DNA of 64,000 nucleotides from Natronococcus sp. A-GB7. Lineage in GTDB: Archaea; Halobacteriota; Halobacteria; Halobacteriales; Natrialbaceae. The position numbers were made by a program, and so were the translations under genes. The stretch is taken from contig NZ_JARUKV010000013.1 in NCBI RefSeq assembly GCF_029688865.1, forward strand, positions 1-64,000. Reading direction: 5' to 3'. Numbering within the stretch: the first letter of the stretch is position 1; each line of letters starts with the position of its first letter. Shown here piece by piece: positions 7,974 to 43,866 of the stretch. Below the pieces are notes generated by a model, which worked only from the letters and a program-made list of their open reading frames with translations, was not told the DNA's origin and made no database searches.

Positions 7974-7997
7974 CACCCACCGCTTCAGCGGTGGGTG
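7974..7997. mobile_element. IS200/IS605-like hairpin at the exporter gene 3' end
   Basis: This is a perfect 10-bp stem, CACCCACCGC TTCA GCGGTGGGTG. The stop codon of the ABC transporter gene (7985-7987) lies in its loop. A second inverted pair, GGCAG/CTGCC, lies just outside (about 7951-7972). It may be an insertion relic that now supplies the stop codon, or a terminator. Confidence 0.5.
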
Positions 7998-9796
7998 GCC
8001 GACGACCGGTATAGTGACGCGTAGGTTCGATCGGCAGCCAACAGTCGTTCGTGGTTCCCTCGTTCGACGATACGGCCGTCTTCCATCGCGTAGATCCGGT
8101 CGACGTCGGTCACGGAAGAGAGTCGATGAGTGATAACCACGAGGGTCCGGTCTGCGTTCCCGGTCGTGACGGCGTCGTACACGCGACGTTCCAGGTTCGC
8201 GTCGAGCTGACTCGACGCCTCGTCGAACACGAGCACGTCGGCGTCCTTGAGGAGCGCCCGCGCGATGGCGACGCGCTGGCGCTGACCGCCGGACAGTCGC
8301 ACCCCGTCGTCGCCGAGCACGGTCTCGTAGCCGTCGGGAAGCTCGTCGACGAACTCGGAGACCTGCGCGGCCGCACACGCTCGCTCGATCGCCGCCTCGC
8401 TGGCGTCGCGGTTGGCGACGGTGACGTTCCAGCGAAGGGTGGCGTCGAAGACGAACGGCTGCTGGCGAACGACCGCGACGCCGTCGCGCCAGCTCTCGAG
8501 ATCGTACGCATCCACCGGAACGGCGTCGGCCGTGACGCGTCCCTCGTCCGGGTCGTACACTCGAGCGAGCAACGCCGCGATCGTCGACTTGCCGGCGCCC
8601 GAGGGGCCGACGAACGCGACGAACTCGCCGCGCTCGATACGGAACGAGACGTCGCGGACCGCGGACGTAGCGGCCGTGTCGTAGGTGAACGTGACGCCGT
8701 CGAACTCGAGTCGTTCGATCGGGGTCGGAACGGCTCGGGATCCGGAGTCGCTCTCGCGGTGCTCCCGGAGTTCGTCGATGAACCGCTGCGTTCGAACCAG
8801 GTGCGGCAGGTTCCGTTCGATCGCGTACACCTCACTGTTGAGGCTGCTGATCTGCGGTGCGAGCCGAAATATCGCGAACAGAAACACCCCGAGGGCCGCA
8901 AGCGAGAGCCCAACGTGTGCCACCGCGACGTAGACGAGTCCGGAGACCACCGTTGCGGCGACGATGCGGTAGCCGTTCTTCAGCGCCGTTTCGTCCCTGT
9001 ATCCGCGAATCTGGGCGGTCTCGTACTCCCTGATAGCGTCGTCGAACCGGCGGCTGAACTCGCCCGCGAGGCCGTAGAGCTTCACGTCGCGAATTCCCTG
9101 CGTGCCGGCCTGGGCGTACCGCTGGATCCGCTCGTTCGCGTCCGCGACGCGCTCCCCGAGCTCGTAGCCGGGGGCGATACCGAACCGGAGGACGGCGGCG
9201 AGGGCCGCGAGGACGACGACCGTCCCGAGCGCGAGAACCGGCGCCAGATACAGCGCGACCGCGAGGTACATCGACACGAGGAGCAGTCGCTGGAAGAACG
9301 ACAGCAGCTGCCCGATCGCCGAGCTGGCGTAGGACGATTGGGTGACGAGGGCGTTCAGGATCTCGTCGGACCCCTCCCTGTCGAAGTACGCGACGTCGGC
9401 CTCGAGGGCCAGATCGTACGCCGTCGTCTGGAGATACGTAAAGTACCTGACCACCAGCGCGGCCTGCAGCCAGGCCACGAGGAAGCTCGCGGTGTAGCGA
9501 AGCGCCATGACCACGGCGACGCCGACGACGACGTATCCGAGGGAGAACGGAACGCCGAGGGCGGCGTAGATCTCGACGAACATCCCGAGCAGACCGTCGG
9601 CACCCCCGTTCGGCGACTCGTCGGTCTGTACCGTCTCCACGATCGGGACGATGAACGTCAACCCGATTCCCTCCAGCAGCGCCGTTGCGAAGCTGAAGAC
9701 GGCGAGCAGGGCGATAGTGAGCGGTCGATGAGCGGCGACTCTGCGGAGCGCTCGATACTGCTCCCCGACCGAAGCCGGCTCGTCGTTCTGGACCAT
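7985..9796 (-). CDS. ABC transporter, exporter type with fused membrane and ATPase domains (lasso D-like)
   Basis: The 603-residue protein has an N-terminal six-helix exporter domain (about residues 25-320) and a C-terminal nucleotide-binding domain with Walker A GPSGAGKST, signature LSGGQRQRVAIARALL, Walker B VLVFDEASSQLD and the switch His in ITHRLSS. It is divergent from the PqqD gene and shares a 120-bp promoter region with it; in lasso-peptide loci the D gene exports the mature peptide. The start at 9796 is chosen because a TATA-like box lies at 9831-9844. The longer upstream frame would begin before the promoter and inside the divergent gene. Confidence 0.9.
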   Translation of the reverse strand: MVQNDEPASVGEQYRALRRVAAHRPLTIALLAVFSFATALLEGIGLTFIVPIVETVQTDESPNGGADGLLGMFVEIYAALGVPFSLGYVVVGVAVVMALRYTASFLVAWLQAALVVRYFTYLQTTAYDLALEADVAYFDREGSDEILNALVTQSSYASSAIGQLLSFFQRLLLVSMYLAVALYLAPVLALGTVVVLAALAAVLRFGIAPGYELGERVADANERIQRYAQAGTQGIRDVKLYGLAGEFSRRFDDAIREYETAQIRGYRDETALKNGYRIVAATVVSGLVYVAVAHVGLSLAALGVFLFAIFRLAPQISSLNSEVYAIERNLPHLVRTQRFIDELREHRESDSGSRAVPTPIERLEFDGVTFTYDTAATSAVRDVSFRIERGEFVAFVGPSGAGKSTIAALLARVYDPDEGRVTADAVPVDAYDLESWRDGVAVVRQQPFVFDATLRWNVTVANRDASEAAIERACAAAQVSEFVDELPDGYETVLGDDGVRLSGGQRQRVAIARALLKDADVLVFDEASSQLDANLERRVYDAVTTGNADRTLVVITHRLSSVTDVDRIYAMEDGRIVERGNHERLLAADRTYASLYRSSATHR

Positions 9797-9830
9797 GGAT
9801 CTCCGGAGCGTCTGTAATCGGGCACTCGCC

Positions 9831-9844
9831 ACCGTTATAACGGT
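9831..9844 (-). promoter_or_regulatory. Palindromic TATA region of the exporter gene
   Basis: ACCGTTATAACGGT is a perfect 14-bp palindrome containing a TATA-like core, about 35-48 nt upstream of the exporter start. It may be both promoter and operator. Confidence 0.5.
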
Positions 9845-9880
9845 TTCCTGGCTTTTGGGAGCCACAGTGGCCGTACCCCT

Positions 9881-9890
9881 CGTTTTAAAC
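9881..9890 (+). promoter_or_regulatory. TATA box of the pqqD-like gene
   Basis: CGTTTTAAAC is centred about 30 nt upstream of ATG 9917, which fits a leaderless transcript and decides the start. Confidence 0.55.
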
Positions 9891-9916
9891 TGATAGCCGT
9901 GCTGATCCCGGTATCC

Positions 9917-10228
9917 ATGACGAAAGATCCGGCACGAATTCGAGACGAGACGGTCGTAACCCGGTCCGACGCGCCCCTCTCGACGACGATCGAGGACGAG
10001 ACGGTCCTCCTGAACCCCGACAGCGGCACGTACCACGGACTGAACGAGGTCGGGACGCGAGTCTGGACGCACCTCGAGTCCCCCGTTAGCGTCGGCGAAC
10101 TGGAGACGGTCGTCGCCGACGAACACGATGTCGCCGAGGCGGAGCTCGGTCCCGATATCAGGGCGTTCCTCGAGGACCTCCTCGAGGCCGACCTGATCGA
10201 ACTCCGGGGCGCTACCGATGATTCGTAG
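9917..10228 (+). CDS. PqqD-family RiPP recognition protein (lasso B1-like)
   Basis: The product is 103 residues. It has the compact PqqD/RRE layout: beta strands (DETVLLNPDSGTYHGLNEVG), then helices (TRVWTHLESPVSVGELETVV and IRAFLEDLLEADLIEL). RRE proteins bind the leader of a precursor peptide and present it to the peptidase; the YxxP motif seen in the three precursors here is the usual contact for lasso B1 proteins. It overlaps the next gene (B2) by 11 nt, so the pair is translated together. In-frame codons upstream of ATG 9917 would lie between the TATA box and the ATG. Confidence 0.9.
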   Translation: MTKDPARIRDETVVTRSDAPLSTTIEDETVLLNPDSGTYHGLNEVGTRVWTHLESPVSVGELETVVADEHDVAEAELGPDIRAFLEDLLEADLIELRGATDDS

Positions 10229-10649
10229 CGTCGTCCGTTACTGTCGTCGAGGCTACTCGCTACCGGTTCGTGACCAGTGGCTCCTCGTGGAGACCGTCCT
10301 CCTAGTGGTACTAGTCCGCGCCGGGCTGTTCGTCGCTTCGTACCCGTCGGTTCGTGACGGACTCGACGTCGCGTGTTCGGTCTTCGACGGGGCGTTTACA
10401 CCCGCTTGCCCGCGAGGGCGAGTGCCGTGGGCGGTCGAGCGGGTCGCGTCGGCTCTTCCGGGAACGCAGTCCTGTCTGGTCAGAGCGCTGGTCGCCGAAA
10501 CGCTTCTCGTTCGCCGCGGGTATCCGGCAGCTCTTCGGTTCGGCGTCGATCATTCTGACGAGGAGTTCGTCGCTCACGCGTGGGTCGAAAGCGGTAGCGA
10601 AGTGGTCGTCGGCGGCGAGGTGCGACCGGCGTTCACTCGACTTCGATGA
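10218..10649 (+). CDS. Transglutaminase-like leader peptidase (lasso B2-like)
   Basis: The 143-residue product matches lasso biosynthesis B2 proteins in length and motifs. It has a membrane-proximal N-terminus (SLPVRDQWLLVETVLLVVLV), the nucleophile Cys in GTQSCLVRALVAETLL, and the His in FVAHAWVE followed by an acidic residue, giving the Cys-His-Asp/Glu triad. Family role: cleavage of the precursor leader bound by the PqqD protein. Two CTAG tetranucleotides lie in its 5' part (10302-10314). A decayed copy lacking the Cys segment lies at 11598-11945. Confidence 0.88.
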   Translation: MIRSVVRYCRRGYSLPVRDQWLLVETVLLVVLVRAGLFVASYPSVRDGLDVACSVFDGAFTPACPRGRVPWAVERVASALPGTQSCLVRALVAETLLVRRGYPAALRFGVDHSDEEFVAHAWVESGSEVVVGGEVRPAFTRLR

Positions 10650-10672
10650 CGAGTAACTGAATCACACAGGTC

Positions 10673-10690
10673 TGTGAAATAGAATTATAT
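10673..10690 (+). promoter_or_regulatory. Promoter of precursor 1
   Basis: TGTGAAATAGAATTATAT combines BRE-like and TATA-like sequence. The same block is present upstream of precursors 2 and 3, at a similar distance (about 45 nt) from the ATG. Confidence 0.55.
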
Positions 10691-10731
10691 GCGGACGCGG
10701 CGTCGATTACCGTGCATCAGGTGACGATCCT

Positions 10732-10848
10732 ATGGGAGACGACTACGAGCCACCGCGGCTGACCACGTTCGGCAGCATCACGGAAGTAACGAAACAGGGG
10801 AAGTGCAACGGGAAAGGCTCGCCGAGCGAACTCTCCGTCGGCTACTGA
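10732..10848 (+). CDS. RiPP precursor peptide 1
   Basis: This gene encodes 38 residues. The leader MGDDYEPPRLTTFGSITEVT has the YxxP motif and the conserved Thr typical of lasso leaders; the likely core KQGKCNGKGSPSELSVGY includes a Cys and ends in GY. There is no Asp/Glu seven to nine residues after a plausible Gly-1, so a canonical macrolactam is not obvious. Precursor 2 reads on through the position of this stop codon (GGC in place of TGA), giving a longer C-terminus. The gene is directly downstream of B2 with its own promoter. Confidence 0.85.
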   Translation: MGDDYEPPRLTTFGSITEVTKQGKCNGKGSPSELSVGY

Positions 10849-10967
10849 CGGGGCCCGCGTGAGACGGGAGAAGTCCAGGGAGACGTTTGCGGTAGTAGAG
10901 CGAGCGGTGGCGAGGTGTGATCGGCGTTCGCCGACTTCGATGCTGGGCCGCTGAACTACACGGGTCT

Positions 10968-10985
10968 GTGAAATAGGATTATGTG
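10968..10985 (+). promoter_or_regulatory. Promoter of precursor 2
   Basis: TGTGAAATAGGATTATGT is the same element as upstream of precursor 1, with two substitutions in the TATA core. Confidence 0.5.
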
Positions 10986-11024
10986 CGGATGCGGCGTCGA
11001 CCCTGTATAACTGGTACCGATGAA

Positions 11025-11156
11025 ATGAGAGACGACTACGAGCCACCCCGGCTGACCACGTTCGGTAGCGTCACGGAGATAACAAAACGGGGGAAGGGCA
11101 AGGGTAGAGGCCCGCCGGACGAACTTCCTATCGGCTACGGCCGAGGGCCCCCGTGA
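11025..11156 (+). CDS. RiPP precursor peptide 2
   Basis: This gene encodes 43 residues. The leader MRDDYEPPRLTTFGSVTEIT is nearly identical to that of precursor 1; the putative core KRGKGKGRGPPDELPIGYGR plus GPP is basic and Gly/Pro-rich. The segment G-x-P-x-E-L-x-(V/I)-G-Y aligns with precursor 1, and PIGYG with precursor 3. Acidic residues lie too far from the core N-terminus for standard lasso ring closure. A start at 11022 would read into an in-frame stop, so ATG 11025 is used. Confidence 0.8.
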   Translation: MRDDYEPPRLTTFGSVTEITKRGKGKGRGPPDELPIGYGRGPP

Positions 11157-11159
11157 GAC

Positions 11160-11597
11160 AGTGAGCGGAACGTAGACACCGTTTCGATCGGCGATCGTAC
11201 CGTCGAGTCGTCGGTTTCGATCCCCGAGGTCGAGCGGGCTCGATCGACGTCGAGTATCACGACGAAGCCGGACGTCACGACCAGGTGCGGACGCGTCGAA
11301 ACCCGCCGGCACGGATCGGAGCGCCCCAGCGTATCGATGGGTGACCGAACCGTCTCGATGTCTCCCCCCGGAATCGGTCGATTCGAAATTCGAACGGGAA
11401 ACGAGACCGAATCGGTCCGGTCGGCCGCACCCGAAGCTCGCGGACGATCGGTTCGGTTTCGAGGTGCCGCCCTCGACTCAACCGCTCGAGACGACGAAGC
11501 AGTACTATCGCATCCCCGAGCCTCCCGCTCGAGTACCCGATCGGATCTGTGTGGTCTTCTCCCTCGAGCGCGAGTCGGTGCTCGCAGTCGGTTTCGT
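11160..11597 (+). pseudogene. Decayed HPr-kinase-like gene copy
   Basis: Nucleotide similarity to the intact kinase gene at 12202-13080 is visible in two blocks. The first (about 11200-11400, TTTCGATCCCCGAGGT and GATTCGAAATTCGAAC) matches its 5' part. The second (about 11425-11597) matches the segment encoding KLADDRFAFEVFPST and KQYYRVPEP. The intervening DNA that would encode the P-loop is missing and the frame is broken, so no active kinase can be made. It continues directly into a B2 remnant. Confidence 0.75.
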
Positions 11598-11945
11598 GAC
11601 CGGAGCAGCTCGCGGAACCCGTGCTACTAGTACTGGACTAGTCCGTGCGGGATGTTTCGTCGCTTCGTACTCGTCGGCTCACAACGGGTTCGACGTCTCG
11701 AGTTCGGTCCTCGATGGGGCGCTCACAGGAATTCGAGGAGGAAGCCCACGACTGAAGTCGTGAGTGACTTACACCCGCTTGGACGCGAGAACGAGTTCCG
11801 TGAGCGTCGAGCGAGTCGCGGGTATCCGGCAGCCCTGCGTTTCGGCGTCGATCTCCGAGAGGGAGCGTTCATCGTCCACGCGTTGATCGAAAGCGGTGCC
11901 GAGGGGGTGGCGGCGGTGAGGCGCGTCCGGCGTTCGCCCGACTCC
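11598..11945 (+). pseudogene. Decayed B2-like gene copy
   Basis: Two stretches match the intact B2 gene. One encodes VRAGCFVASYSSAHNGFDVS (compare VRAGLFVASYPSVRDGLDVA); the other encodes SRGYPAALRFGVDLREGAFI. The DNA for the catalytic Cys segment is deleted, and a 46-nt hairpin-bearing insertion (11725-11770) interrupts the first stretch. Frames shift between the parts. The 3' tail runs into the promoter of precursor 3. Confidence 0.75.
11725..11770. mobile_element. 46-nt hairpin-bearing insertion in the B2 pseudogene
   Basis: Compared with the intact B2 gene (GGGGCGTTTACACCCGCTT), the pseudogene reads GGGGCGCTC, then 46 extra nt, then ACACCCGCTT. The insert carries the hairpin CACGAC TGAA GTCGTG (11747-11762) of the IS200/IS605 end type and finishes with CTT next to AC, so a TTAC-like tetranucleotide marks the junction. 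It is either a solo end or an excision scar, without a transposase. Confidence 0.6.
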
Positions 11946-11973
11946 GGTAATGGATATCTGACCCACACCGATC

Positions 11974-11991
11974 CGTGAAGTAGCGTTATGT
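11974..11991 (+). promoter_or_regulatory. Promoter of precursor 3
   Basis: CCGTGAAGTAGCGTTATGT is a diverged copy of the block upstream of precursors 1 and 2. Confidence 0.45.
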
Positions 11992-12033
11992 ACTGACGGG
12001 GAGTCGATTGCCGTGTAGCAAGGTGACAATCAG

Positions 12034-12177
12034 ATGAGGGACGATTACGAGCCACCACGGCTGACCACGTTCGGAAACGTCGAGGAGATAACCAAACGAG
12101 GCGGAGGAGGCGGAGGCGGTGGCGGTGGAGGGGGCGGAGGCGGCGGAGGAGGAGGACCGATCGGCTACGGACAATAA
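12034..12177 (+). CDS. RiPP precursor peptide 3 with polyglycine core
   Basis: This gene encodes 47 residues. The leader MRDDYEPPRLTTFGNVEEIT matches the other two precursors, including YxxP and the conserved Thr. After KR come 19 consecutive Gly codons (12100-12156; GGA, GGC, GGT and GGG mixed, so not a simple homopolymer), then PIGYGQ. The Gly run has no acidic acceptor residue. Mixed codons and the preserved frame argue that it is translated. The kinase gene follows 24 nt downstream and lacks its own TATA box, suggesting cotranscription. Confidence 0.82.
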   Translation: MRDDYEPPRLTTFGNVEEITKRGGGGGGGGGGGGGGGGGGGPIGYGQ

Positions 12178-12201
12178 CGTTCCTTAGACAGCGAGAACCA
12201 C

Positions 12202-13080
12202 ATGGACCTCTTTTCGATTTACGATCTCACCGTCGAATCGTGCGTTTCGATCCCCGAGGTAGCGCGCGTTCGACCGGATCCGGGCGCCACGACGGAGCCG
12301 GACATCACGATCAGGTGCGAAAGCGTCGAGACGAACCGGGACGGGCCGGACCGTCTGGAGGTATCGGTCGACGACCGGGTCGTCTCGCTCTCCGTCCCCG
12401 AGGTCGGTTGGTTCGAAATCCGCGATGGAACGACGATCACCGTCGATTCCGTGACCGAGCTCTCGGACCAGCAGGTCCGTGCGGTTCTCACGGGTCCGGC
12501 GCTTGGCTACCTCCTCTATCAGCGCGGGCTACTGGTGCTCCACGGGAGCGCCGTCGCGCGCGACGGGGCGGGCTACCTCTTTCTCGGGACGAAAGGCGCG
12601 GGGAAATCGACGACGGCGGGCACGCTGGCTCGACAAGGATACGCCGTCCTCTCCGACGACGTTACCGTAATCGACGTTCGCGACGGAGCGCTCCGACTCC
12701 TCCCCGGACGACCGCATCTGAAACTCGCGGACGACCGCTTCGCCTTCGAGGTGTTTCCCTCGACGGCGTCGCTCGAGATGACCAAACAGTACTACCGCGT
12801 CCCGGAACCCGCGCCTCGAGCGCCCGAACGGATCGGCGCGGTCTTCCTCCTCGAGCGCGGGTCGGAGCTCGCAGTCGAGGAGCTGCCACCGAGCGCTGCC
12901 GTCTGGGGGGTGCTCGAGCAGCTGTACGTTCGCCAGTTCAGCGACGAACTGAACAGCGAACGCTGTTTCGAGCAGGCGACCGCCCTCGTCGATCGGACGT
13001 CGATTCGACGGCTCGTCCGACCCGACGATACCGATGCGCTATCCGAGATCCCATCACTCATCACCGATGTCGACAGCTGA
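12202..13080 (+). CDS. HPr-kinase-like protein (lasso K-like)
   Basis: The 292-residue product has an N-terminal beta-rich domain followed by a HprK/P-type kinase core. Walker A is GTKGAGKS (about residues 129-136), followed by LSDDVTVID (about 151-159) and the GRPHLKL segment. HPr-kinase homologues in paeninodin-type lasso loci phosphorylate the C-terminal Ser of the precursor; here two of the three precursors lack a suitable C-terminal Ser, so the target may be Tyr or another step. The gene overlaps the nucleotidyltransferase gene by 14 nt. A deleted copy lies upstream at 11160-11597. Confidence 0.85.
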   Translation: MDLFSIYDLTVESCVSIPEVARVRPDPGATTEPDITIRCESVETNRDGPDRLEVSVDDRVVSLSVPEVGWFEIRDGTTITVDSVTELSDQQVRAVLTGPALGYLLYQRGLLVLHGSAVARDGAGYLFLGTKGAGKSTTAGTLARQGYAVLSDDVTVIDVRDGALRLLPGRPHLKLADDRFAFEVFPSTASLEMTKQYYRVPEPAPRAPERIGAVFLLERGSELAVEELPPSAAVWGVLEQLYVRQFSDELNSERCFEQATALVDRTSIRRLVRPDDTDALSEIPSLITDVDS

Positions 13081-14266
13081 TATCGATACTCCGTTCGCCC
13101 GTCCGGAAGACGCCCTGCAACGGCCCGAACACCGGTTCCTCCTGCGGTGCGTGCGACAGACGACGCACGACGTCCCGCGGGTCGAACCGCCCGCGGCGGA
13201 CGAGTTCGACTGGGAGTACTTCCGCCGACTCGCGAACGACCACCGTCTCGCGTCGCTGGTCAACCGCTGTCTCACCGACGAGGCGAAAGCGGCCATCCCC
13301 GACGCGGTCGTCGCGGACTTCGAGTCGATCGCCGAGTGGGTGACGTACCGAAACCTCGGGATGATCGGGACGACTCGAGCGGTGCTCTCGCTCCTCGAGG
13401 CGCGCGGAATCAGCGCGCTTCCGTACAAGGGGCCGGTTCTCGCCGCCGTCGTTCACGGCGACCTCGCCTTTCGGGGGTCGAAGGACGTCGACGTCCTGCT
13501 CCCGAAGGCGGAGATCTCGGCCGCGAGGGAGACCCTGCTAGCGAACGGATTCCGACCGAAGGATCCGTCGGCGATCGGAACCGAACCCGGCGAGATGGGG
13601 AGTAACCGCCACTCGACGGTCGTCAGCGAGGACGACATCCGGGTCGAACTGCACTGGCGAATTACGGGAAATCGGTTCCCGTTCGCGGTCGACTTCGAGC
13701 GGTTGTGGCGGACCCGCGAAACGGCCGACGTCGGGGGCACGACGATGCCGATACCGTCGCTCGACGAACTCGTCGTCCCCCTCGCGGTACACGGGAACCG
13801 CCACTGCTGGTCGGAGCTGGCGTGGCTCTGTGACTTCGCCGGTACCGTCGACGCTCGCGACTTCGACTGGGGCGACCGACTCCGAGCGGCGTCCGATCTC
13901 GGGGCGAAACGAATGCTCCTGGTCGGATTGGGGCTGGTCGACCTCCTCACGGACGTCGAGTTACCTCCGATCGTTCGGCGCCACCTTCGATCCGATCGGG
14001 TGGCGAACGAGCTGTCGAAGGCGGTGGTGACGTCGTTTCTGTGGACCGCGGCCCCCTCGACACTCGCGACGGTCCGGTACATGCTCCGGGTTCGAGAACG
14101 TCCCACGGATACGCTCAGAGCGGTCGCGAGACTGGCGTTGCTTCCCGGGAGAAAGGACTTCGAACTCCTCCCGCCTCGCGCCCGATACTATCCGCTCGCG
14201 GTCGCCTGCCGACCGATTCGGATAGCGGGGACGGCCGGCACGAACGCGGCGGGTCGGTTCCGCTGA
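13067..14266 (+). CDS. Nucleotidyltransferase-family protein (NTP_transf_5 type)
   Basis: The protein is 399 residues from ATG 13067. The motif block LPYKGPVLAAVVHGDLAFRG followed by KDVDVLLP is the Pol-beta-like nucleotidyltransferase signature of this family (the DxD of the metal site is DVD). It is followed by VELHWRI and PSLDELVVPLAVHG. Genes of this family recur in lasso and related RiPP loci beside an HPr-kinase homologue, where they are thought to modify the peptide further. It is the last gene of the locus and is translationally coupled to the kinase by the overlap, which fixes the start. Confidence 0.82.
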   Translation: MSTADIDTPFARPEDALQRPEHRFLLRCVRQTTHDVPRVEPPAADEFDWEYFRRLANDHRLASLVNRCLTDEAKAAIPDAVVADFESIAEWVTYRNLGMIGTTRAVLSLLEARGISALPYKGPVLAAVVHGDLAFRGSKDVDVLLPKAEISAARETLLANGFRPKDPSAIGTEPGEMGSNRHSTVVSEDDIRVELHWRITGNRFPFAVDFERLWRTRETADVGGTTMPIPSLDELVVPLAVHGNRHCWSELAWLCDFAGTVDARDFDWGDRLRAASDLGAKRMLLVGLGLVDLLTDVELPPIVRRHLRSDRVANELSKAVVTSFLWTAAPSTLATVRYMLRVRERPTDTLRAVARLALLPGRKDFELLPPRARYYPLAVACRPIRIAGTAGTNAAGRFR

Positions 14267-15455: not shown

Positions 15456-15584
15456 CGTCGCTTGCGTCGGCACAACGAACTGTTACCGTCCCCGGCGGGG
15501 TCGAGAAACGCGACCGTGTTCGACGGACGCTCCGAAGCTACTTCCCGGCAGACGGTGGGATCGAACGAAAGCGCCGATGCTCGC

Positions 15585-16613
15585 ATGAGTCTCGAAGTCG
15601 AACACATAGACAGCATCGAGGAAGCGAACCGCAACCAGTGGAACCACGTCGTCGAGGGATCGGAGCTGGGCTGTGTCTTTCACCGCTACGAGTGGCTCCG
15701 GGCGATCGAGGAGGGGCTCGACTACGAGCCGAGACACCTCCTCGTCTCGAAGAAGGGCAACCCGATCGCCGTCCTCCCGAACTTCGTCACCCGCCTCGGC
15801 CCCGTCGCGCAGCTGACGTCGATCGAGCCGGGCTACGGCGGGCCGATCGCCGTCGCCGACGAGGAGTGGGCGCTCGAACTCCTGCTCGACGGCGTCGCCG
15901 AGCGCTGCGACGGACGGATCCTGTTCAACCGGTTCCGAACCTACGACGAGGGGTACGTGCGCTACCAGAACGTCCTCCGGGAGCGAGGGTACGACCTCAC
16001 CGTCCACTCCTGTCGGTTCGCGCTGGATCTCACCCGCGGCTGGGACGCGATCCTCGAGGGGATGGACGGCGAGCGCCGACGCGGTATCCGACGCGGCCGC
16101 GAGTCCGACCACGAGATCCGCGAGGAGCCCGTGACGCCCGCCGTGCTGGCCGACTTCTACGACGACTACGCGCGAGTGATGGATCGGGTCGGAATGGACG
16201 CCGTCCCCTACTCGTTTCTGTCCGCGCTCGAGGGGCTCGCGGATCGGATCACGATCCTCTCGCTGCGGGCCGACGGCGAGCGACGCGGGATGTACCTCTT
16301 TCTGGAGGACGACGAGCAGTCGGCGGTCCAGCACCTCTACACCGCCGTCACCAGGGACCACTTCGAGTACCACGCTCCCGAACTGCTCCACGAGCACGCG
16401 ATCGGACGGGCGATCGAGCGGGGGTACGAGACCTACGAGCTCCGCGGATCGACGCCCGACTTCAGGAACGGCGTCTTCGGTTTCAAGGAACGCTTCGGTG
16501 CCCGGCCGATCCCGCTGTTGCTGTGGGAACGGGGGCGGCCGTCCCCGGCGCTGTCGGCGCTGAATCTCGGGCGAACGCTCTACTGGCGGTTCGGGTCACC
16601 GACGTGGGACTGA
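15585..16613 (+). CDS. FemAB/GNAT-type acyltransferase
   Basis: The product is 342 residues from ATG 15585. The two-lobed GNAT layout of FemAB-like proteins is visible: NQWNHVVEGSELGCVFHRYE and LLVSKKGNPIAVLPNF in the first lobe, a charged RRGIRRGRESDHEI linker, then GMYLFLEDDEQSAVQHLYTA and YETYELRGSTPDFRNGVFGF KE-type motifs in the second. Members of this group transfer aminoacyl or acyl groups to glycans or cell-wall precursors. The flippase gene follows 54 nt downstream, suggesting modification of the exported glycan. The upstream extension of the frame lacks coding bias. Confidence 0.82.
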   Translation: MSLEVEHIDSIEEANRNQWNHVVEGSELGCVFHRYEWLRAIEEGLDYEPRHLLVSKKGNPIAVLPNFVTRLGPVAQLTSIEPGYGGPIAVADEEWALELLLDGVAERCDGRILFNRFRTYDEGYVRYQNVLRERGYDLTVHSCRFALDLTRGWDAILEGMDGERRRGIRRGRESDHEIREEPVTPAVLADFYDDYARVMDRVGMDAVPYSFLSALEGLADRITILSLRADGERRGMYLFLEDDEQSAVQHLYTAVTRDHFEYHAPELLHEHAIGRAIERGYETYELRGSTPDFRNGVFGFKERFGARPIPLLLWERGRPSPALSALNLGRTLYWRFGSPTWD

Positions 16614-16667
16614 TCCGGTGCGCCCCCGAACGACGCGCGTCGGCGACGTTCGTTCGGGCGGATCCGC

Positions 16668-18197
16668 ATGGCTGACTCGCTGTCCTCGGCGGTGCGGTCG
16701 GTCGTCGGTGCGAAGCTGTTCGTCGTCCTCGCGGGCTTTCTGTTCACGCCCGCGCTGGTTCGGCTGCTCGGCCCGACAGAGTACGGTCGGTACGCGCTCG
16801 CGCTCTCGATCTTCGGGATCGTCAACGTCGTGATCGTCGGGGGGACGAGCGACGCGGTTCGCAAGTACATCTCCGAGCGCTCGGATCCCGCCTGGCGGGC
16901 CGCGGTCTACGGCTACGTGTTCCGCCCGGCGCTGGCCCTCGGCGTCCTCGTCGGGGTCGCCTTCTGGTTAGCCGCGTGGTCCGGGCTCGCTGCCCGCCTG
17001 TTCGGCCCGCCGTTCACCTCGCTGTTCTATCTGCTCGGTGGGTATGCTCTCGCCAGCCAGCTCGCCTACCACAACCTGCGGACGCTGATGGGGCTCGAGC
17101 GCGAGTCCCAATCGGAGCCGCTGAAGGTCCTCGAGAAGACGCTGTTCGTCGTCGCGGCGCTGGGGCTCGTCTATCTGGGCTTCGGCGTGGAGGGCGTGCT
17201 CCTCGGACACATCCTCGCCAGCGTCGCGGTGTTCGTGTTGGCGCTTGCGGTCATCGCGCAGACGATCCCGCTGCGCTCGCTCGTCTCGCCGCCGAAGATC
17301 GACCTTCCCAGGCGCGGGATCGCCGCCTACCTGGGAAGTACGATCCTCTTCTTTCTCTTTTTGAACTCGCTGTACCACGTCGACGTCGTCCTCCTGCAGC
17401 TGTGGACGACCGACGAGACCGTCGGCTACTACCGGGGAGCACTCTCGATCGCCGAGTTCCTCTGGCTCGCCCCGACCGCGGTTCAACTCGTGCTCCTCCA
17501 GCGGATCTCGAGTCGGTGGGCCGCGGGCGACCTCGAGGCGATCCAGCGCCAGGCCGAACGAGCCACCCGGTACGTCCTCCTTCTGACGGCGCTGCTGGCG
17601 GTGGGGGTCGCCGCGCTGGCCGCCGACTTCGTCCCGCTCTACCTCGGTTCGGCGTTCGAGCCGTCGGTGCTGCCCCTATTGCTGTTGCTGCCTGGCGTCG
17701 TCGGCTTCGCCGTCGCGCGGCCGACGCTGGCGATCAACCAGGGGCGGCGCTCGCTGCGTCCCCTGCTGGCGGCGACGGGCGCCTGCTCGCTGGTCAACCT
17801 GGGGCTCAACCTGGCGCTGATCCCCGCCTACGGGATGGCGGGCGCGGCCGTCGCCACCTCGATCGGCTACGGCAGCCTCGTCGCGTTCCAGTCGCTCGCC
17901 GCCCGCCACGTCGGGTATCGCCCGCTCGAGGGCGTTCGATCGAAACCGATTCTCGTCTCGACCGTCGGGACGGCCGTCCTCATCGTTCCGCTTACGGTCG
18001 CCGTCCCCTCGTCGCTGCTGGCCCTCGCCGTGGTCCCGCCGCTGGGTGCCATCGCGTACGCGACGCTCGCGGTCGTCACCGGCGCGCTCACCCGCGAGGA
18101 GCTCGCGGAGATCGTCGACGGGATCGGCGTCTTCCCGCGGGGGCTCGAGCGGCGACTGTTCGTCGTGGTCGATCGGTTGCCGAAGCTCCAGGAGTGA
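16668..18197 (+). CDS. Polysaccharide flippase (Wzx/MATE-MOP superfamily)
   Basis: The 509-residue protein has about 14 transmembrane helices. It starts SLSSAVRSVVGAKLFVVLAG and contains LVRLLGPTEYGRYALALSIF, the hallmark N-terminal segment of Wzx/RfbX proteins. The helices in the second half include YGMAGAAVATSIGYG. It moves lipid-linked oligosaccharides across the membrane. A second flippase is encoded at 25650-27110. The neighbouring FemAB-like gene on the same strand probably belongs to the same transcript. Confidence 0.9.
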   Translation: MADSLSSAVRSVVGAKLFVVLAGFLFTPALVRLLGPTEYGRYALALSIFGIVNVVIVGGTSDAVRKYISERSDPAWRAAVYGYVFRPALALGVLVGVAFWLAAWSGLAARLFGPPFTSLFYLLGGYALASQLAYHNLRTLMGLERESQSEPLKVLEKTLFVVAALGLVYLGFGVEGVLLGHILASVAVFVLALAVIAQTIPLRSLVSPPKIDLPRRGIAAYLGSTILFFLFLNSLYHVDVVLLQLWTTDETVGYYRGALSIAEFLWLAPTAVQLVLLQRISSRWAAGDLEAIQRQAERATRYVLLLTALLAVGVAALAADFVPLYLGSAFEPSVLPLLLLLPGVVGFAVARPTLAINQGRRSLRPLLAATGACSLVNLGLNLALIPAYGMAGAAVATSIGYGSLVAFQSLAARHVGYRPLEGVRSKPILVSTVGTAVLIVPLTVAVPSSLLALAVVPPLGAIAYATLAVVTGALTREELAEIVDGIGVFPRGLERRLFVVVDRLPKLQE

Positions 18198-25649: not shown

Positions 25650-27110
25650 TCAGTTCAGTATAGCCAGCGCGTCACGAGGTTCAACCAGCCCGATCGCGAC
25701 CGAGCATCCAAGCCAGAGTGCGAATCCGATTCCAACGACGAGAAACAACGTAATCCAGCCGGTCACGTACCCGACGAGAACGAACACGACGAGGGACATC
25801 GATGCGGTTACACCCAGTATTCGCCCGAGCCGTTTCGTTATCTTTCCGACGTCGAGACCGAACTCGTAATGAATGAGCAGAACGCACGCCAGCGTATACG
25901 CCCCGTGGGTCACGACGGTCGATATCGCCGCACCGACGACACCAACCGTCGGGATGAGGACGATGTTGAGAAGGAGGTTACAGACCGCGGCCACGCCCCG
26001 GATTACCGCTCTGGTTCGTGCACGTCCCAGGTAGTCGAGACTGTGGCTCGTGATTTCGAGGACGGCGACGAAGACGGCGTACACGGCCAGAACCTGCAGA
26101 ACGGGAACCGCGCCCCTGTACTCGGACCCGAACAGGAGCTCGACCACCGGACCCGCGACGAGAATCAGTCCGGCCGTCGCGGGAATGTAGAACGTCAACG
26201 CCGTGAGCAGCGTGTACTCGTATATCCGTCCGGCGCGCTCGGTGTTCTGTTTCGCCTTTTCGGCGCCGAACGTCGGCGAGAGCGTAAAGCCCGCGGCGCT
26301 CATCGGCTTGTCGATGAACGTCGTTATCTGATTGGCGACGACATAGAAACTCACGGCCGCCGGGTTGAGAAAGAATCCGATGAGAACGATGTCCATCCCC
26401 TTGTCGAGGTTGGCCATCGTGCTTGTCGCGGTTATCGGGACGGAGTACTCCGCGATCCGACGCCGGAGTCCGTCCTCCATGACGTGACTGATCGACTCAG
26501 TGTAGTTGTCGCGAACGAGGACGGCACCGACCACCGTCGAAAGAAAGGAAGCGAAGATATAGCCGCCGAGAGCGCCGAAGGCACCGAATCCGAGTAGCAC
26601 GAACGCGACGGCGAAGACGGCGGTGCCGGCGTTCCTGGTGACTTTGACGAGAACGCTGTGTTCGATCCGTTCGAACCCCTGTAGCATGTACTTGAAGTAG
26701 ACGAACAGCGTCTCGAAGATCAGATACAGCACACCGAGCAGCAGGAACGGAGCGAGGTTCGGTTCGCCAACCCGAACCGCGATCGCCCGGTGGCTGAACA
26801 GCAACACCAGACAGGTGATCGCGATCGTCAGCGCGTTCATCCAGAACGACGAGCGAACGATGTGGGGTACCTGTCCCGGATTCGTCTCCTTGTACTCCGA
26901 GATGTACCGGGCCGCGGATCGGGCAATTCCGAGCTTCGAGAAGGTCAGAAAGATGCTCAGTATCGATAACGCGAGAAAGAGCAGTCCGTAGTCCGTCGGT
27001 CCGAGAAGCCGCGCGAGAACGACCGCAACGACGACTCCGGAGGCTGCTACGACGGCCTGGCCGCCCAGGGCGACTCGAAACCGCGAAACCAATGTCGATG
27101 TCTTCGTCAT
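25650..27110 (-). CDS. Polysaccharide flippase (Wzx-like), second copy
   Basis: The protein is 486 residues from ATG 27110, with about 14 helices. The N-terminal motif GGQAVVAASGVVVAVVLARL LGPTDYGLLFLAL is characteristic of the MOP superfamily; MDIVLIGFFLNPAAVSFYVV and VVGAAISTVVTHGAYTLACV are in the later helices. A TATA-like box at about 27203-27212 (minus strand) lies downstream of the alternative start at 27272, supporting ATG 27110. It is convergent with the ParB-like gene, with a 27-nt gap. Confidence 0.9.
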   Translation of the reverse strand: MTKTSTLVSRFRVALGGQAVVAASGVVVAVVLARLLGPTDYGLLFLALSILSIFLTFSKLGIARSAARYISEYKETNPGQVPHIVRSSFWMNALTIAITCLVLLFSHRAIAVRVGEPNLAPFLLLGVLYLIFETLFVYFKYMLQGFERIEHSVLVKVTRNAGTAVFAVAFVLLGFGAFGALGGYIFASFLSTVVGAVLVRDNYTESISHVMEDGLRRRIAEYSVPITATSTMANLDKGMDIVLIGFFLNPAAVSFYVVANQITTFIDKPMSAAGFTLSPTFGAEKAKQNTERAGRIYEYTLLTALTFYIPATAGLILVAGPVVELLFGSEYRGAVPVLQVLAVYAVFVAVLEITSHSLDYLGRARTRAVIRGVAAVCNLLLNIVLIPTVGVVGAAISTVVTHGAYTLACVLLIHYEFGLDVGKITKRLGRILGVTASMSLVVFVLVGYVTGWITLFLVVGIGFALWLGCSVAIGLVEPRDALAILN

Positions 27111-28036
27111 GATGGAAGCTCGGGACACCCGATCGAGACCGATCGGACGCGGAGCCATCCGGGCGTCCGTGCGCCACGACAGTTGGAGAACGTGCTCTCC
27201 TCGATAAAGATTGTGACCGTCTAGAGCGGCTCGATCGTCGGTTTCGTCCGGCGTGAACCTGGACCGAAGCATCGACGAACGACGATTGAGAGAACGACCG
27301 ACTCCGTAACACGCAGGAGTCGTGGCGCGAGCGACGGTGTCGTTTCCCTACAGTCGCCGGGATCGCCACGAGTGGTTGGTGCCCCGCTGTGGTTCCCGAG
27401 CTCGTCACGGATAGCGTCCCTAGACTAGGCGACTAGTACCACGAAAGACGTCGTTCGGTAACGGAGAGCCGAGTGCCGAACTGCGTTTTGTCGGTTCTCG
27501 TCGTTGATGCCAGAAGGCGAAAAGACCAACGCGCGAAGCCAACCGGGGACTTCGGGCGGACGAATCCGGGATTGAGTCCTCAGACTCGAGGTCGCTACCA
27601 ATAGATTCGCCGAAGGAAGGCGTCGAGCAATCGGTCGACTCGATCGCGACCTGACCGCCCGGGGATAGCTCGATCGGATATCGAGTCCCTGCGATCGAAA
27701 CGAGCGCGGGAAATGTCGAACGTCAATCGACGAACGTCGTGCGCTGTAAACGGAAGATCCGAGAAGTCGGCGACGCCACAACCTTCTGCAACTACCAGAT
27801 GAGCCGGTTCGGGACGGCGCGGTCCGACGAGACGTCGTCCAAAGTCTGATTCTCCGCCGAACGGCGACAATAGCTTTGTGAGGTCACGGTTCATGGAGGA
27901 CTGTTCCGATGAGTTCTCACGCTCGCACGGTCGACCGTCCGCCTCGAAGCTCCTGTCGTTCGTCCGCGACGTTCGGTGGGATGTACCGATCGCATCGTCG
28001 AAACCGCCTCCTCGCGTCGCTCCTCGAGGTACTCTC
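27111..28036. other. Long intergenic region, no gene
   Basis: This region is about 0.9 kb between divergent genes. Open frames here lack acidic composition and families. CTAG occurs three times in 17 nt (27420-27436). It probably contains promoters for the flippase (minus) and the surface-protein operon (plus). It may also contain decayed coding DNA that I cannot recognise. Confidence 0.45.
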
Positions 28037-41769: not shown

Positions 41770-42728
41770 CGGTCCCCGTAGGCGTCGTAGATCCCGTTCA
41801 TCGTCGTCAGCTCGTACCCGCGAGAGACGAGCGTCGAGAGGTTCCGTTCGAGGATCGCCGTGGATCGCTCGAGGTTCCGTTTCATGATCCAGCGTTTGGG
41901 CGCGGCGAGCTTATCGTGCGATGCGGTTCGGTACAGATCCTGCAGGTGGACGTTGTAGACGACCACGTTCGGGAGCGGCGAGACGCCGAGATACGACGAC
42001 AGCGGCCGACCGAAGAGCTTGAAGTAGCTCTGTGATACCGGGATCCTGATCCCCCGGTGGACGCCGAGGGGAATCTCGAGCAGCGACGACGCGGTGCTCG
42101 GCGTGTACGGTTCGGTCGGCGCGGTCAGGTTGTTGTACACGCCCGGTCGGTACGACGGGAACACGCTCGAGTCGAATTTGAAGCCGAGCCGTTCCAGCAC
42201 GCGGAACCCGTCCGGATCGATGTTTCCCTGCTGGGCGCGGTACCCGACGGGATCCGTGCCGAAGTGGTTCCGATAGGCCCGCATCCCTCTTCGAACCTCC
42301 TCCTCGAAGTCGAACTCGTTGCTGACGTCGTGTTGGTACGTGTGGAGGTGAAACTCCGTCCCCAGCGCCGACCGCAGTTGCTCGACCTTCTCGGGGTATG
42401 CCTCGAGCGTCTTGCCGACGACGAACGCGGTGAGCGGGACGCCGAGCCCGTCGATCAGTTCGACGAAGTCGTCGAGGTACTCGAGGGTGAGGTGATCGTA
42501 CCGCGGGTCGTCGAAGTACCAGTCGTCCTCGAGGTCGATCGTGAGGCAGGCGAGGCGGTCGTCGGGTCCGAACGGGCGGTCGGGCTCGCCCCTCGCCGTC
42601 GGGGGTTCTAGTTGCGGCTCGGGAGCGAACGCGTCGTCACCGATCGTCGGGGATCGGGAGGCGGACTCGGCTTCGGCACGCGCGTTCGGAGGATGGGCGT
42701 GACCCCCACTCTGGGCGTCTTTACTCAC
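41766..42728 (-). CDS. Polysaccharide deacetylase (NodB-like)
   Basis: The 320-residue protein has a disordered acidic N-terminus of about 50 residues, then the NodB barrel: LACLTIDLEDDWYF (metal-binding Asp/Glu in place of the usual TFDDG), EFHLHTYQHD (HxxxH metal ligands), PVGYRAQQGNID (RxxxG motif) and a C-terminal VVVYNVHLQDL. It removes N- or O-acetyl groups from a glycan. The start overlaps the GT2 gene stop by 8 nt, so it is the third gene of the leftward operon 45185-41766. Confidence 0.85.
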   Translation of the reverse strand: MSKDAQSGGHAHPPNARAEAESASRSPTIGDDAFAPEPQLEPPTARGEPDRPFGPDDRLACLTIDLEDDWYFDDPRYDHLTLEYLDDFVELIDGLGVPLTAFVVGKTLEAYPEKVEQLRSALGTEFHLHTYQHDVSNEFDFEEEVRRGMRAYRNHFGTDPVGYRAQQGNIDPDGFRVLERLGFKFDSSVFPSYRPGVYNNLTAPTEPYTPSTASSLLEIPLGVHRGIRIPVSQSYFKLFGRPLSSYLGVSPLPNVVVYNVHLQDLYRTASHDKLAAPKRWIMKRNLERSTAILERNLSTLVSRGYELTTMNGIYDAYGDR

Positions 42729-43866
42729 GGATCTGCACCTCCGCGTGCTCGTTTACCTGCATGTCGAACAGCATCGCGAACATGAGGAACATACTCCCCA
42801 TAATGAACAGCATCGAACTGAGCGACGCCCGGACGAACAGCCCGTTGTCGAGCAGGAGGTAGCCGACGATCGTCCACAGGCCGCCAGCGATCCCGAACGC
42901 TGCCGTGAGGGCTCCGAACAGGTAAAACAGCGCGAGCGGGTGAAAGTCGAGCACGAGGTACTTCACCTTCAGCCGCCAGAGGAAGTTCCGGAGCAGCATT
43001 CCAGAGACCCGTCGGATGTACGTCGTGTAGCTGATCGACGACTGCTCCTCGCCGTACTTCGCGGGAATCGCGACGTCGGCGACGCGCATCCCCTTCGCGT
43101 TCAGCTTCACGAGCAGATCGTTGCAGTAGCCGTAGTACTCGTACATCTCCTCGATCCCGCTGTTCGCCAGCGCGTAGTGTGAGATCGCGGTGTACCCGTT
43201 CTGGGGGTCCATCGTCTTCCAGTACCCGCTGGCGATCTTCGTCAGCAGCGTGAGTATCGAGTTACCGAAAAACCGAAACCCCGGCATGTCGGCGCGGTAC
43301 TCCCGGTAGAGGAGCCTGTTCCCTTTCGCGTAGTCGGCTTCGTCGTCGACGAGCGGATCGAGGAGCTTCGGAAGCTGGGAGAGGTCCATCTGTCCGTCGC
43401 CGTCGACCGTGGAAACGATATCGACCGCCTCCTCGAGCGCGGCCAGGTATCCCGTCTTGATCGCGCCGCCGGCGCCCAGGTTCTCGCGGTGTCGGATCGG
43501 GACGACCCGCCCGACTGGCGATCCGATCTCCGCGCGCTCGAGCAGGAGGTCGTTCGGATCGTCGGGCGGCACGAACTCGGCGCCGAACAGGCCGGCGTCC
43601 CCGCCGCCGTCCGCGATGGTTCCCGATCCGTCGGCGGCGGCGGGCCCGTCGGCGTCGAGCGCTGTTTCGGTCGCGACGGCCGACGGACGCTCCGTCGCGT
43701 CCTCTCGGCCGGCCTCGAGGATCTCGGCCCAGGTTCCGTCGGACGAGCAGTCGTCGACGACGTAGAGTCGATCAACGTACTGTGGCATCTCACGGATGAC
43801 ATCGCCGACGAACCCCGCTTCGTTGTACGCCGGGACGACGACCCCGACGGTGTGGTCGCGGTACAT
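42721..43866 (-). CDS. Glycosyltransferase family 2 (dolichyl-phosphate sugar synthase-like)
   Basis: The product is 381 residues. The GT-A motifs are VGVVVPAYNEAGFVGDVIRE, YVVDDCSSDGTW, RHRENLGAGGAIKTGYLAAL and STVDGDGQMDLSQLPKL, with EEQSSISYTTY and two C-terminal helices (LFYLFGALTAAFGIAGGL and ASLSSMLFIMGSMFLMFAML). The DPM1/DPG-type layout with C-terminal membrane helices suggests transfer of a sugar to a dolichyl-phosphate carrier. An insert of about 60 acidic Ala/Gly-rich residues after the DDCSSDG motif is unusual. TGATG overlap with the dehydrogenase gene fixes the start. Confidence 0.87.
   Translation of the reverse strand: MYRDHTVGVVVPAYNEAGFVGDVIREMPQYVDRLYVVDDCSSDGTWAEILEAGREDATERPSAVATETALDADGPAAADGSGTIADGGGDAGLFGAEFVPPDDPNDLLLERAEIGSPVGRVVPIRHRENLGAGGAIKTGYLAALEEAVDIVSTVDGDGQMDLSQLPKLLDPLVDDEADYAKGNRLLYREYRADMPGFRFFGNSILTLLTKIASGYWKTMDPQNGYTAISHYALANSGIEEMYEYYGYCNDLLVKLNAKGMRVADVAIPAKYGEEQSSISYTTYIRRVSGMLLRNFLWRLKVKYLVLDFHPLALFYLFGALTAAFGIAGGLWTIVGYLLLDNGLFVRASLSSMLFIMGSMFLMFAMLFDMQVNEHAEVQIRE

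What the first reader, a model, noticed from the sequence alone, without database searches (positions are those of the whole stretch)
7985..14266. Lasso-like RiPP locus in a haloarchaeon without a cyclase gene
The sequence shows an ABC exporter, a PqqD-type B1, a B2 peptidase with Cys and His, three precursors with YxxP leaders, an HPr-kinase-like protein and a nucleotidyltransferase. Established: this is the set found in paeninodin-type lasso loci, where an asparagine-synthetase-like C protein closes the ring. No such gene is in the window, and the cores lack an acidic residue at ring position 7-9. Inference: the locus makes a linear or differently modified peptide, a new class using lasso-type leader handling.
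Basis: partly seen in the sequence, partly recalled or inferred. Interest (0 to 1): 0.93.

Follow-up and report, generated by a model that had tools for sequence, protein, structure and literature searches.

The report
Cyclase-free lasso-like peptide locus, haloarchaeon
A salt-loving archaeon carries a complete gene set for making and exporting small, probably phosphorylated peptides that looks like a lasso-peptide pathway but has no ring-closing enzyme, and the same cyclase-free set recurs in 16 haloarchaeal genomes, so it is probably a separate pathway making linear peptides rather than a broken one.

Summary
At 7985-14266 lie an ABC exporter, a PqqD/B1 leader-binding protein, a B2 leader peptidase, three YxxPxL precursors, an HprK-like kinase with the His-Lys-Asp-Asp residues, and a nucleotidyltransferase. 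The genome has no other B1 or B2, and nothing resembling the haloarchaeal lasso cyclase (best hit 87 bits, partial; true cyclases score over 500). The main result is comparative. Of 36 B2 loci found in Halobacteria, 17 (16 genomes, 5 genera, 3 families) have no cyclase; the only gene families these share are B1, B2, kinase, nucleotidyltransferase and nearly always the exporter. Their cores are short (median 12 aa against 26) and mostly lack a ring acid (2/16 have one, against 25/27). Their exporters branch apart. I conclude that this is a cyclase-free, B2-processed sibling of phosphorylated lasso loci whose product is most likely a linear phosphopeptide. It works like the LPP family of Bacillota published in 2026, but with B2 instead of a signal peptidase. 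Unexplained: six cores have Tyr but no Ser or Thr, although known kinases of this type act on Ser. The window itself is a long branch with decayed duplicates, so secondary loss of a cyclase in this lineage remains possible.

The parts
7985..9796 (-). ABC exporter (permease + ATPase, no peptidase domain), about 603 aa; the longest ORF runs from 10126 but the likely start is ATG at 9796
   Evidence: PF00664 + PF00005; exporters of loci with and without a cyclase lie on opposite sides of one branch (SH-aLRT 96), with the window on the cyclase-free side
9899..10228 (+). B1: PqqD-like RiPP recognition element, about 103-109 aa (ATG 9917 or GTG 9899)
   Evidence: PF05402 2.5e-16; NF033536 lasso PqqD 5e-14; only PqqD in the genome above cut-off
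10218..10649 (+). B2: transglutaminase-fold leader peptidase, 143 aa; Cys86 and His120 kept, acidic third residue probably Glu in GGE
   Evidence: PF13471 4.9e-21; NF033537 81.7 bits over cut-off 33; only B2 in the genome; invariant C86/H120
10732..10848 (+). precursor 1: MGDDYEPPRLTTFGSITEVTK | QGKCNGKGSPSELSVGY
   Evidence: NF033521 lasso_leader_L3 21.0 bits, cut-off 19; core start inferred from Thr at -2
11025..11156 (+). precursor 2: MRDDYEPPRLTTFGSVTEITK | RGKGKGRGPPDELPIGYGRGPP
   Evidence: NF033521 21.0 bits; promoter and leader region 83% mean column identity with the other two copies
11157..11978 (+). decayed tandem copy: remnant of HprK (about 11157-11625) followed by remnant of B2 (about 11630-11945)
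   Evidence: ORF 11341-11763 matches HprK 71.5 bits and B2 27.2 bits; ORF 11652-11978 matches B2 31.7 bits; sequence
12034..12177 (+). precursor 3: MRDDYEPPRLTTFGNVEEITK | R(G)19PIGYGQ; mixed glycine codons, no acidic residue in the core
   Evidence: NF033521 22.4 bits; codons
12202..13080 (+). HprK-like kinase, 292 aa, Walker A and H-K-D-D intact
   Evidence: PF07475 2.2e-5, below the Pfam cut-off; TIGR04352 4e-11; HprK structures in the PDB by profile; H114 K135 D152 D153 invariant
13034..14266 (+). nucleotidyltransferase NTP_transf_5, 399-410 aa (starts 13034 or 13067), D140xD142 kept
   Evidence: PF14907 6.9e-51; R136, D140, D142 invariant

Best explanation
The locus is a cyclase-free sibling of phosphorylated (paeninodin-type) lasso-peptide loci. 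Proposed working: the YxxPxL leader is held by B1; the HprK-like kinase phosphorylates the precursor; B2 cuts after the residue that follows Thr(-2); the nucleotidyltransferase adds a further group (nucleotide or sugar) to the phosphate; and the ABC protein exports a linear peptide. No macrolactam is made because no enzyme for it is encoded and the cores lack a suitable ring acid and tail. Shown here: gene content, intact catalytic residues, genome-wide absence of a lasso-type cyclase, recurrence of the same cyclase-free set, short cores mostly without a ring acid, and a separate exporter branch. Inferred from studied relatives: leader binding, cleavage site, phosphorylation, further decoration. 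Not known: the acceptor residue and the biological role.
For: The only B1 and B2 of the genome are in this locus. A profile of 18 haloarchaeal cyclases scores 535-1035 bits on true cyclases but at most 87 bits (partial) in this genome, and finds nothing at 1e-10 in three genomes that carry cyclase-free loci. The best own-genome hit has a counterpart of similar score in a same-genus genome that lacks B2. 17 loci in 16 genomes lack C; among 8 diverged ones the only families shared are NT, B1, HprK, B2 (8/8) and ABC (7/8). Cores differ: length median 12 against 26 aa (p 9e-7); ring acid with tail in 2/16 against 25/27 under a flexible start (p 2e-7). Exporters of loci with and without C split on one branch (96). 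In ten species of one genus the precursor is identical except for one terminal S to D, with only silent changes otherwise. LPP shows that kinase + RRE + exporter without cyclase is a working pathway (PMC13381572).
Against: In the kinase and NTase trees the window does not join the main cyclase-free clade; it is a long branch near loci with C (L064, L110), so its cyclase may have been lost separately. L064 has a cyclase together with a Gly/Arg core like the window's. The window's duplicated units are partly decayed. With a shifted core start, precursor 2 could place an acid at ring position 7-9. Two of the three cores have no Ser or Thr for a Ser-type kinase. No product has been seen.
Confidence: 0.66

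Rival explanations
1. The window is a degenerating lasso locus: an L064- or L110-like lasso cluster that lost its cyclase and is on the way out.
For: Decayed B2/HprK copies between the precursors; window kinase and NTase fall near L064/L110, which have C; the core of L064 (KGKGRGRGRG) resembles that of precursor 2; poly-Gly core of precursor 3.
Against: All biosynthetic and export genes are intact with catalytic residues. Leaders of the three paralogues differ by silent changes more often than the 24% expected by chance (small numbers). Promoter and start regions of all three copies are kept. The exporter falls with the cyclase-free group. A same-genus genome has another cyclase-free locus, L111.
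Confidence: 0.17
2. A cyclase encoded elsewhere in the genome acts in trans and the product is a lasso or other macrolactam.
For: The genome has several Asn_synthase-family proteins of about 600 aa; one genome, G002, has a split lasso locus with C 20 kb from B1-B2.
Against: None of the own-genome proteins matches the haloarchaeal cyclase profile over full length (87 bits or less); none has B1, B2 or a YxxP precursor nearby; cyclase-free genomes G154, G055 and G036 have no hit at all; precursor 3 has no acidic residue in its core.
Confidence: 0.07
3. The product is cyclised or otherwise cross-linked by an unrecognised activity of the NTase, kinase or B2 (for example B2 as a transpeptidase), giving a ring not based on the lasso isopeptide bond.
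For: B2 belongs to a transglutaminase-type family (PF13471); the function of the NTase in LPP could not be shown (PMC13381572).
Against: The same B2, kinase and NTase families are present in loci that do have a cyclase, so no extra activity is needed to explain them; no enzyme specific to the cyclase-free loci was found.
Confidence: 0.06

Closest known systems
Linear polyphosphorylated peptides (LPP), Paenibacillus alginolyticus lpp cluster and relatives in Bacillota (PMC13381572)
   Same: No macrolactam cyclase; discrete RRE with YxxP leaders; HprK-like kinase; NTP transferase; MsbA-like exporter; often near polysaccharide genes; close kin of paeninodin loci
   Different: LPP uses an archaeal-type signal peptidase (SpI/LppS) for leader removal, here it is B2 and no SpI lies in the locus; LPP leader motif YxxPxVLxHQxIxFETxxS is absent; LPP core studied is 45 aa with phospho-Ser3, here 17-26 aa and two cores without Ser/Thr; LPP reported as restricted to Bacillota
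Paeninodin / pseudomycoidin-type phosphorylated lasso peptides
   Same: B1, B2, HprK-like kinase with H-K-D-D, ABC exporter, [Y/W]xxP leader, Thr at -2; NTase as in pseudomycoidin
   Different: No cyclase C, no ring acid at 7-9 in the window cores, no conserved C-terminal Ser
Haloarchaeal lasso-like loci with a cyclase (e.g. Halopiger xanaduensis plasmid, L048)
   Same: Same class of archaea, same B1/B2/HprK/NTase/ABC families and leaders
   Different: They encode an AsnB-like C; cores of mostly 22-32 aa with a ring Asp and mostly a GS near the C-terminus
HPr-rel-A system of NCBIfam (TIGR04352/TIGR04353)
   Same: PqqD-like chaperone plus HprK-related kinase
   Different: Window kinase and B1 match below the cut-offs (42.5 of 200 bits; 28.5 of 35 bits), and the window has B2

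Membership tests
Lasso peptide locus | Precursor with RRE-binding leader and Thr at -2 | tested here: met
   lasso_leader_L3 over cut-off for all three; YEPPRL and T(-2)
Lasso peptide locus | B1 (RRE) and B2 leader peptidase | tested here: met
Lasso peptide locus | AsnB-like macrolactam cyclase C, in the locus or in the genome | tested here: not met
   No hit in window; best genome hit 87 bits partial against over 500 for true C
Lasso peptide locus | Asp/Glu at core position 7-9 followed by a tail | tested here: not met
   None of the three cores with the core start set by Thr(-2); only precursor 2 if the start is shifted by 2-3 residues
Lasso peptide locus | Threaded macrolactam in the product | not testable with these tools
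   needs MS/NMR
LPP (linear polyphosphorylated peptides) | No cyclase; RRE + HprK kinase + NTP transferase + MsbA-like exporter | tested here: met
LPP (linear polyphosphorylated peptides) | SpI/SipW-like leader peptidase in the cluster | tested here: not met
   TIGR02228 hits on contigs C1, C8, C23, none on the window's contig C5; B2 present instead
LPP (linear polyphosphorylated peptides) | Leader motif YxxPxVLxHQxIxFETxxS | tested here: not met
   Leaders read YEPPRLTTFGxxxExTK
LPP (linear polyphosphorylated peptides) | Phosphorylation of a core Ser | tested here: inconclusive
   Cores 2 and 3 contain no Ser/Thr; modification itself not testable here
HPr-rel-A system (NCBIfam) | TIGR04352 and TIGR04353 over cut-off | tested here: not met
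   42.5 bits of 200 and 28.5 of 35

The most novel reading that the evidence does not exclude
Haloarchaea hold a distinct RiPP family in which B1/B2 processing is uncoupled from cyclisation and the HprK-like kinase (with the NTase) modifies a conserved tyrosine in a short linear peptide, giving exported phospho- or nucleotidyl-tyrosine peptides that may act as signals; within one genus the 12-residue core (WWDHDDGYGKW[S/D]) is almost invariant.
Probability: 0.25. Interest if true: 0.8.

Novelty: new variant of a known kind. Interest (0 to 1): 0.62.

Why it matters
It shows that leader handling by B1/B2, thought of as a lasso hallmark, also occurs as a standing pathway without the ring-closing enzyme, in archaea, next to sister loci that keep the cyclase. 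That gives a natural comparison of what the cyclase adds. Genome-mining tools will mislabel these loci as lasso or as generic RRE clusters. The cores without Ser/Thr make a direct test possible of whether HprK-type peptide kinases can use tyrosine. If the products are signals, the near-invariant core in one genus is a ready candidate for an archaeal peptide messenger.

Tried and rejected
Ordinary AsnB paralogues in the own genome as lasso cyclase: rejected (low partial scores, no B1/B2/precursor nearby, counterpart in a same-genus genome without B2). G002 as a cyclase-free case: rejected, its cyclase with a D8 precursor lies 20 kb away. The weaker cyclase-like proteins of genus g33 (about 190 bits): not required, since G154 and G055 have the same locus and no such hit. 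A single origin of all cyclase-free loci: neither shown nor rejected (p-AU 0.068). PDB profile search for B2 and the NTase: no solved relative. The named-genome scan with B2 returned only one planctomycete lasso locus. Structure prediction was not used: its rules name only window proteins and loci from certain other tools, and single-sequence models would be weak. Whether cyclase-free B2 loci also exist in bacteria was not surveyed.
Full report
OBSERVATION. Searches show, left to right: an ABC exporter on the minus strand (likely start 9796), a PqqD-type B1 (PF05402, 2.5e-16), a B2 peptidase (NF033537, 81.7 bits against a cut-off of 33), three short precursors with YEPPRL leaders that all pass the curated lasso_leader_L3 cut-off, an HprK-like kinase and an NTP_transf_5 protein. 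Catalytic positions are intact: Cys86 and His120 of B2; H114, K135, D152, D153 of the kinase, matching the His-Lys-Asp-Asp set described for lasso kinases (PMC9266682); the DxD of the nucleotidyltransferase. The acidic third residue of B2 is probably Glu in GGE rather than the Asp of most relatives; whether this matters is not known.

DUPLICATION. Between precursors 1 and 3 the DNA repeats a unit made of the B2 3' end, the promoter region, a precursor and the start of HprK. The extra HprK and B2 pieces are decayed, but the promoter-leader stretch of all three copies is well kept (83% mean column identity), and the leaders differ by silent changes more often than chance would give (small numbers). 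No trace of a cyclase was recognised in the duplicated unit.

CYCLASE. The genome (4.88 Mb, 99% complete) has one B2 and one PqqD above cut-off, both here. It has several Asn_synthase-family proteins. To judge them I built a profile from 18 cyclases that sit beside B1-B2 in other haloarchaea. True cyclases score 535-1035 bits; the best in this genome is 87 bits over part of the profile, and a same-genus genome without B2 has a counterpart of similar score. So the missing cyclase is missing from the genome, within its completeness.

RELATIVES. Of 391 Halobacteria genomes sampled, 31 carry B2; family and genus searches added three more, G404, G410 and G419, for 36 loci in all. I read the neighbourhoods. 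Two kinds of locus appear. Eighteen have an AsnB-like cyclase within a few kilobases of B1-B2, including that on the Halopiger xanaduensis plasmid (contig length 436,718 identifies it; since that genome is in the window's family, the family is Natrialbaceae); a nineteenth, G002, is split. Seventeen, in 16 genomes and 5 genera of 3 families, have none. Across eight diverged cyclase-free loci the only shared families are B1, B2, kinase, NTase (8/8) and exporter (7/8); no replacement modifying enzyme recurs.

CORES. With the core set to begin after the residue following Thr(-2), cyclase loci have cores of median 26 aa, and 25 of 27 offer an acid at ring position 7-9 with a tail if the start may shift by up to three residues; cyclase-free loci have median 12 aa and 2 of 16 do. 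With a fixed start the counts are 14 of 27 against 1 of 16. The counts treat related sequences as independent, so the p-values overstate the case, but the split is clear. In ten species of genus g33 the 32-residue precursor is identical except for one terminal S-to-D change, with scattered silent changes; a more distant species keeps the core nearly unchanged.

TREES. Exporters of the two kinds of locus fall on opposite sides of one branch (SH-aLRT 96), with the window on the cyclase-free side. The kinases of the main cyclase-free group form a supported clade (99/93), but the window's kinase sits by the cyclase side on a long branch, and its NTase sits near L110, a cyclase locus of the same genus. 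A single cyclase-free clade is not rejected (p-AU 0.068). So the general class is well founded, while the window may be a separate, perhaps later, loss.

MECHANISM. Reported for relatives: B1 presents the leader, B2 cuts, HprK-like kinases put one or more phosphates on a core Ser, and the NTase of pseudomycoidin is needed for hexoses on the phosphate (PMC9266682, PMC10368454, PMC13381572). By inference the window makes a leader-free, phosphorylated, further decorated, exported linear peptide. A tension remains: precursors 2 and 3, and four cores elsewhere, have no Ser or Thr, but every one has Tyr (15 of 16 cyclase-free cores have Tyr; all 27 cyclase-locus cores have Ser or Thr). LppK does not accept Tyr at its site. 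Either these kinases use Tyr, or they act on the leader, or some are idle. This is left open.

COMPARISON AND VERDICT. The nearest described system is LPP of Bacillota, cyclase-free with RRE, kinase, NTase and exporter but with a signal-peptidase-like protease; the window has B2 and no such protease in the locus, and the LPP leader motif is absent. It works like LPP and like paeninodin without the ring, but is a member of neither by their defining features. A Haloarcula hispanica cluster with B1, B2 and a kinase was listed earlier as an RRE-dependent RiPP (PMC10093198); I found no paper in the held library that describes cyclase-free B2 loci as a type. Literature outside that library was not seen.

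Noticed in passing
window 10849-12033: Tandem, partly decayed copies of a [B2 3' end - promoter - precursor - HprK start] unit; each precursor keeps its own conserved upstream element (GTGAARTAGnnTTATrT).
   Followed up: yes
window 12100-12156: Nineteen consecutive Gly codons of mixed type in the core of precursor 3; not a pure slippage run at codon level.
   Followed up: partly
L042 13726-17429 (G323): Six precursors in tandem with cores of 8-12 aa, mostly sharing GSEP; a second cyclase-free locus (L045) lies in the same genome with a Trp/Arg core.
   Followed up: partly
L068 and L100 (G002): Split lasso locus: B1-B2-NTase and, 20 kb away, cyclase-precursor-kinase with a D8 core.
   Followed up: partly
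L064 5418-9331 (G086): Cyclase present, but the core GSKGKGRGRGRGRGRGASRGDGLGGGR has no acid at 7-9 under any near start; resembles the window's cores.
   Followed up: partly
L102 and L103 (G106, G051): Cyclase-like AsnB proteins (about 190 bits to the lasso profile) away from B1/B2 in some genus g33 genomes; role unknown.
   Followed up: no
window 15462-18197, 25653-27272, 42724-44535: FemAB-like protein, two Wzx-type flippases and a GT2 glycosyltransferase around the locus: a cell-surface glycan region, as reported for LPP and paeninodin loci in Bacilli.
   Followed up: partly
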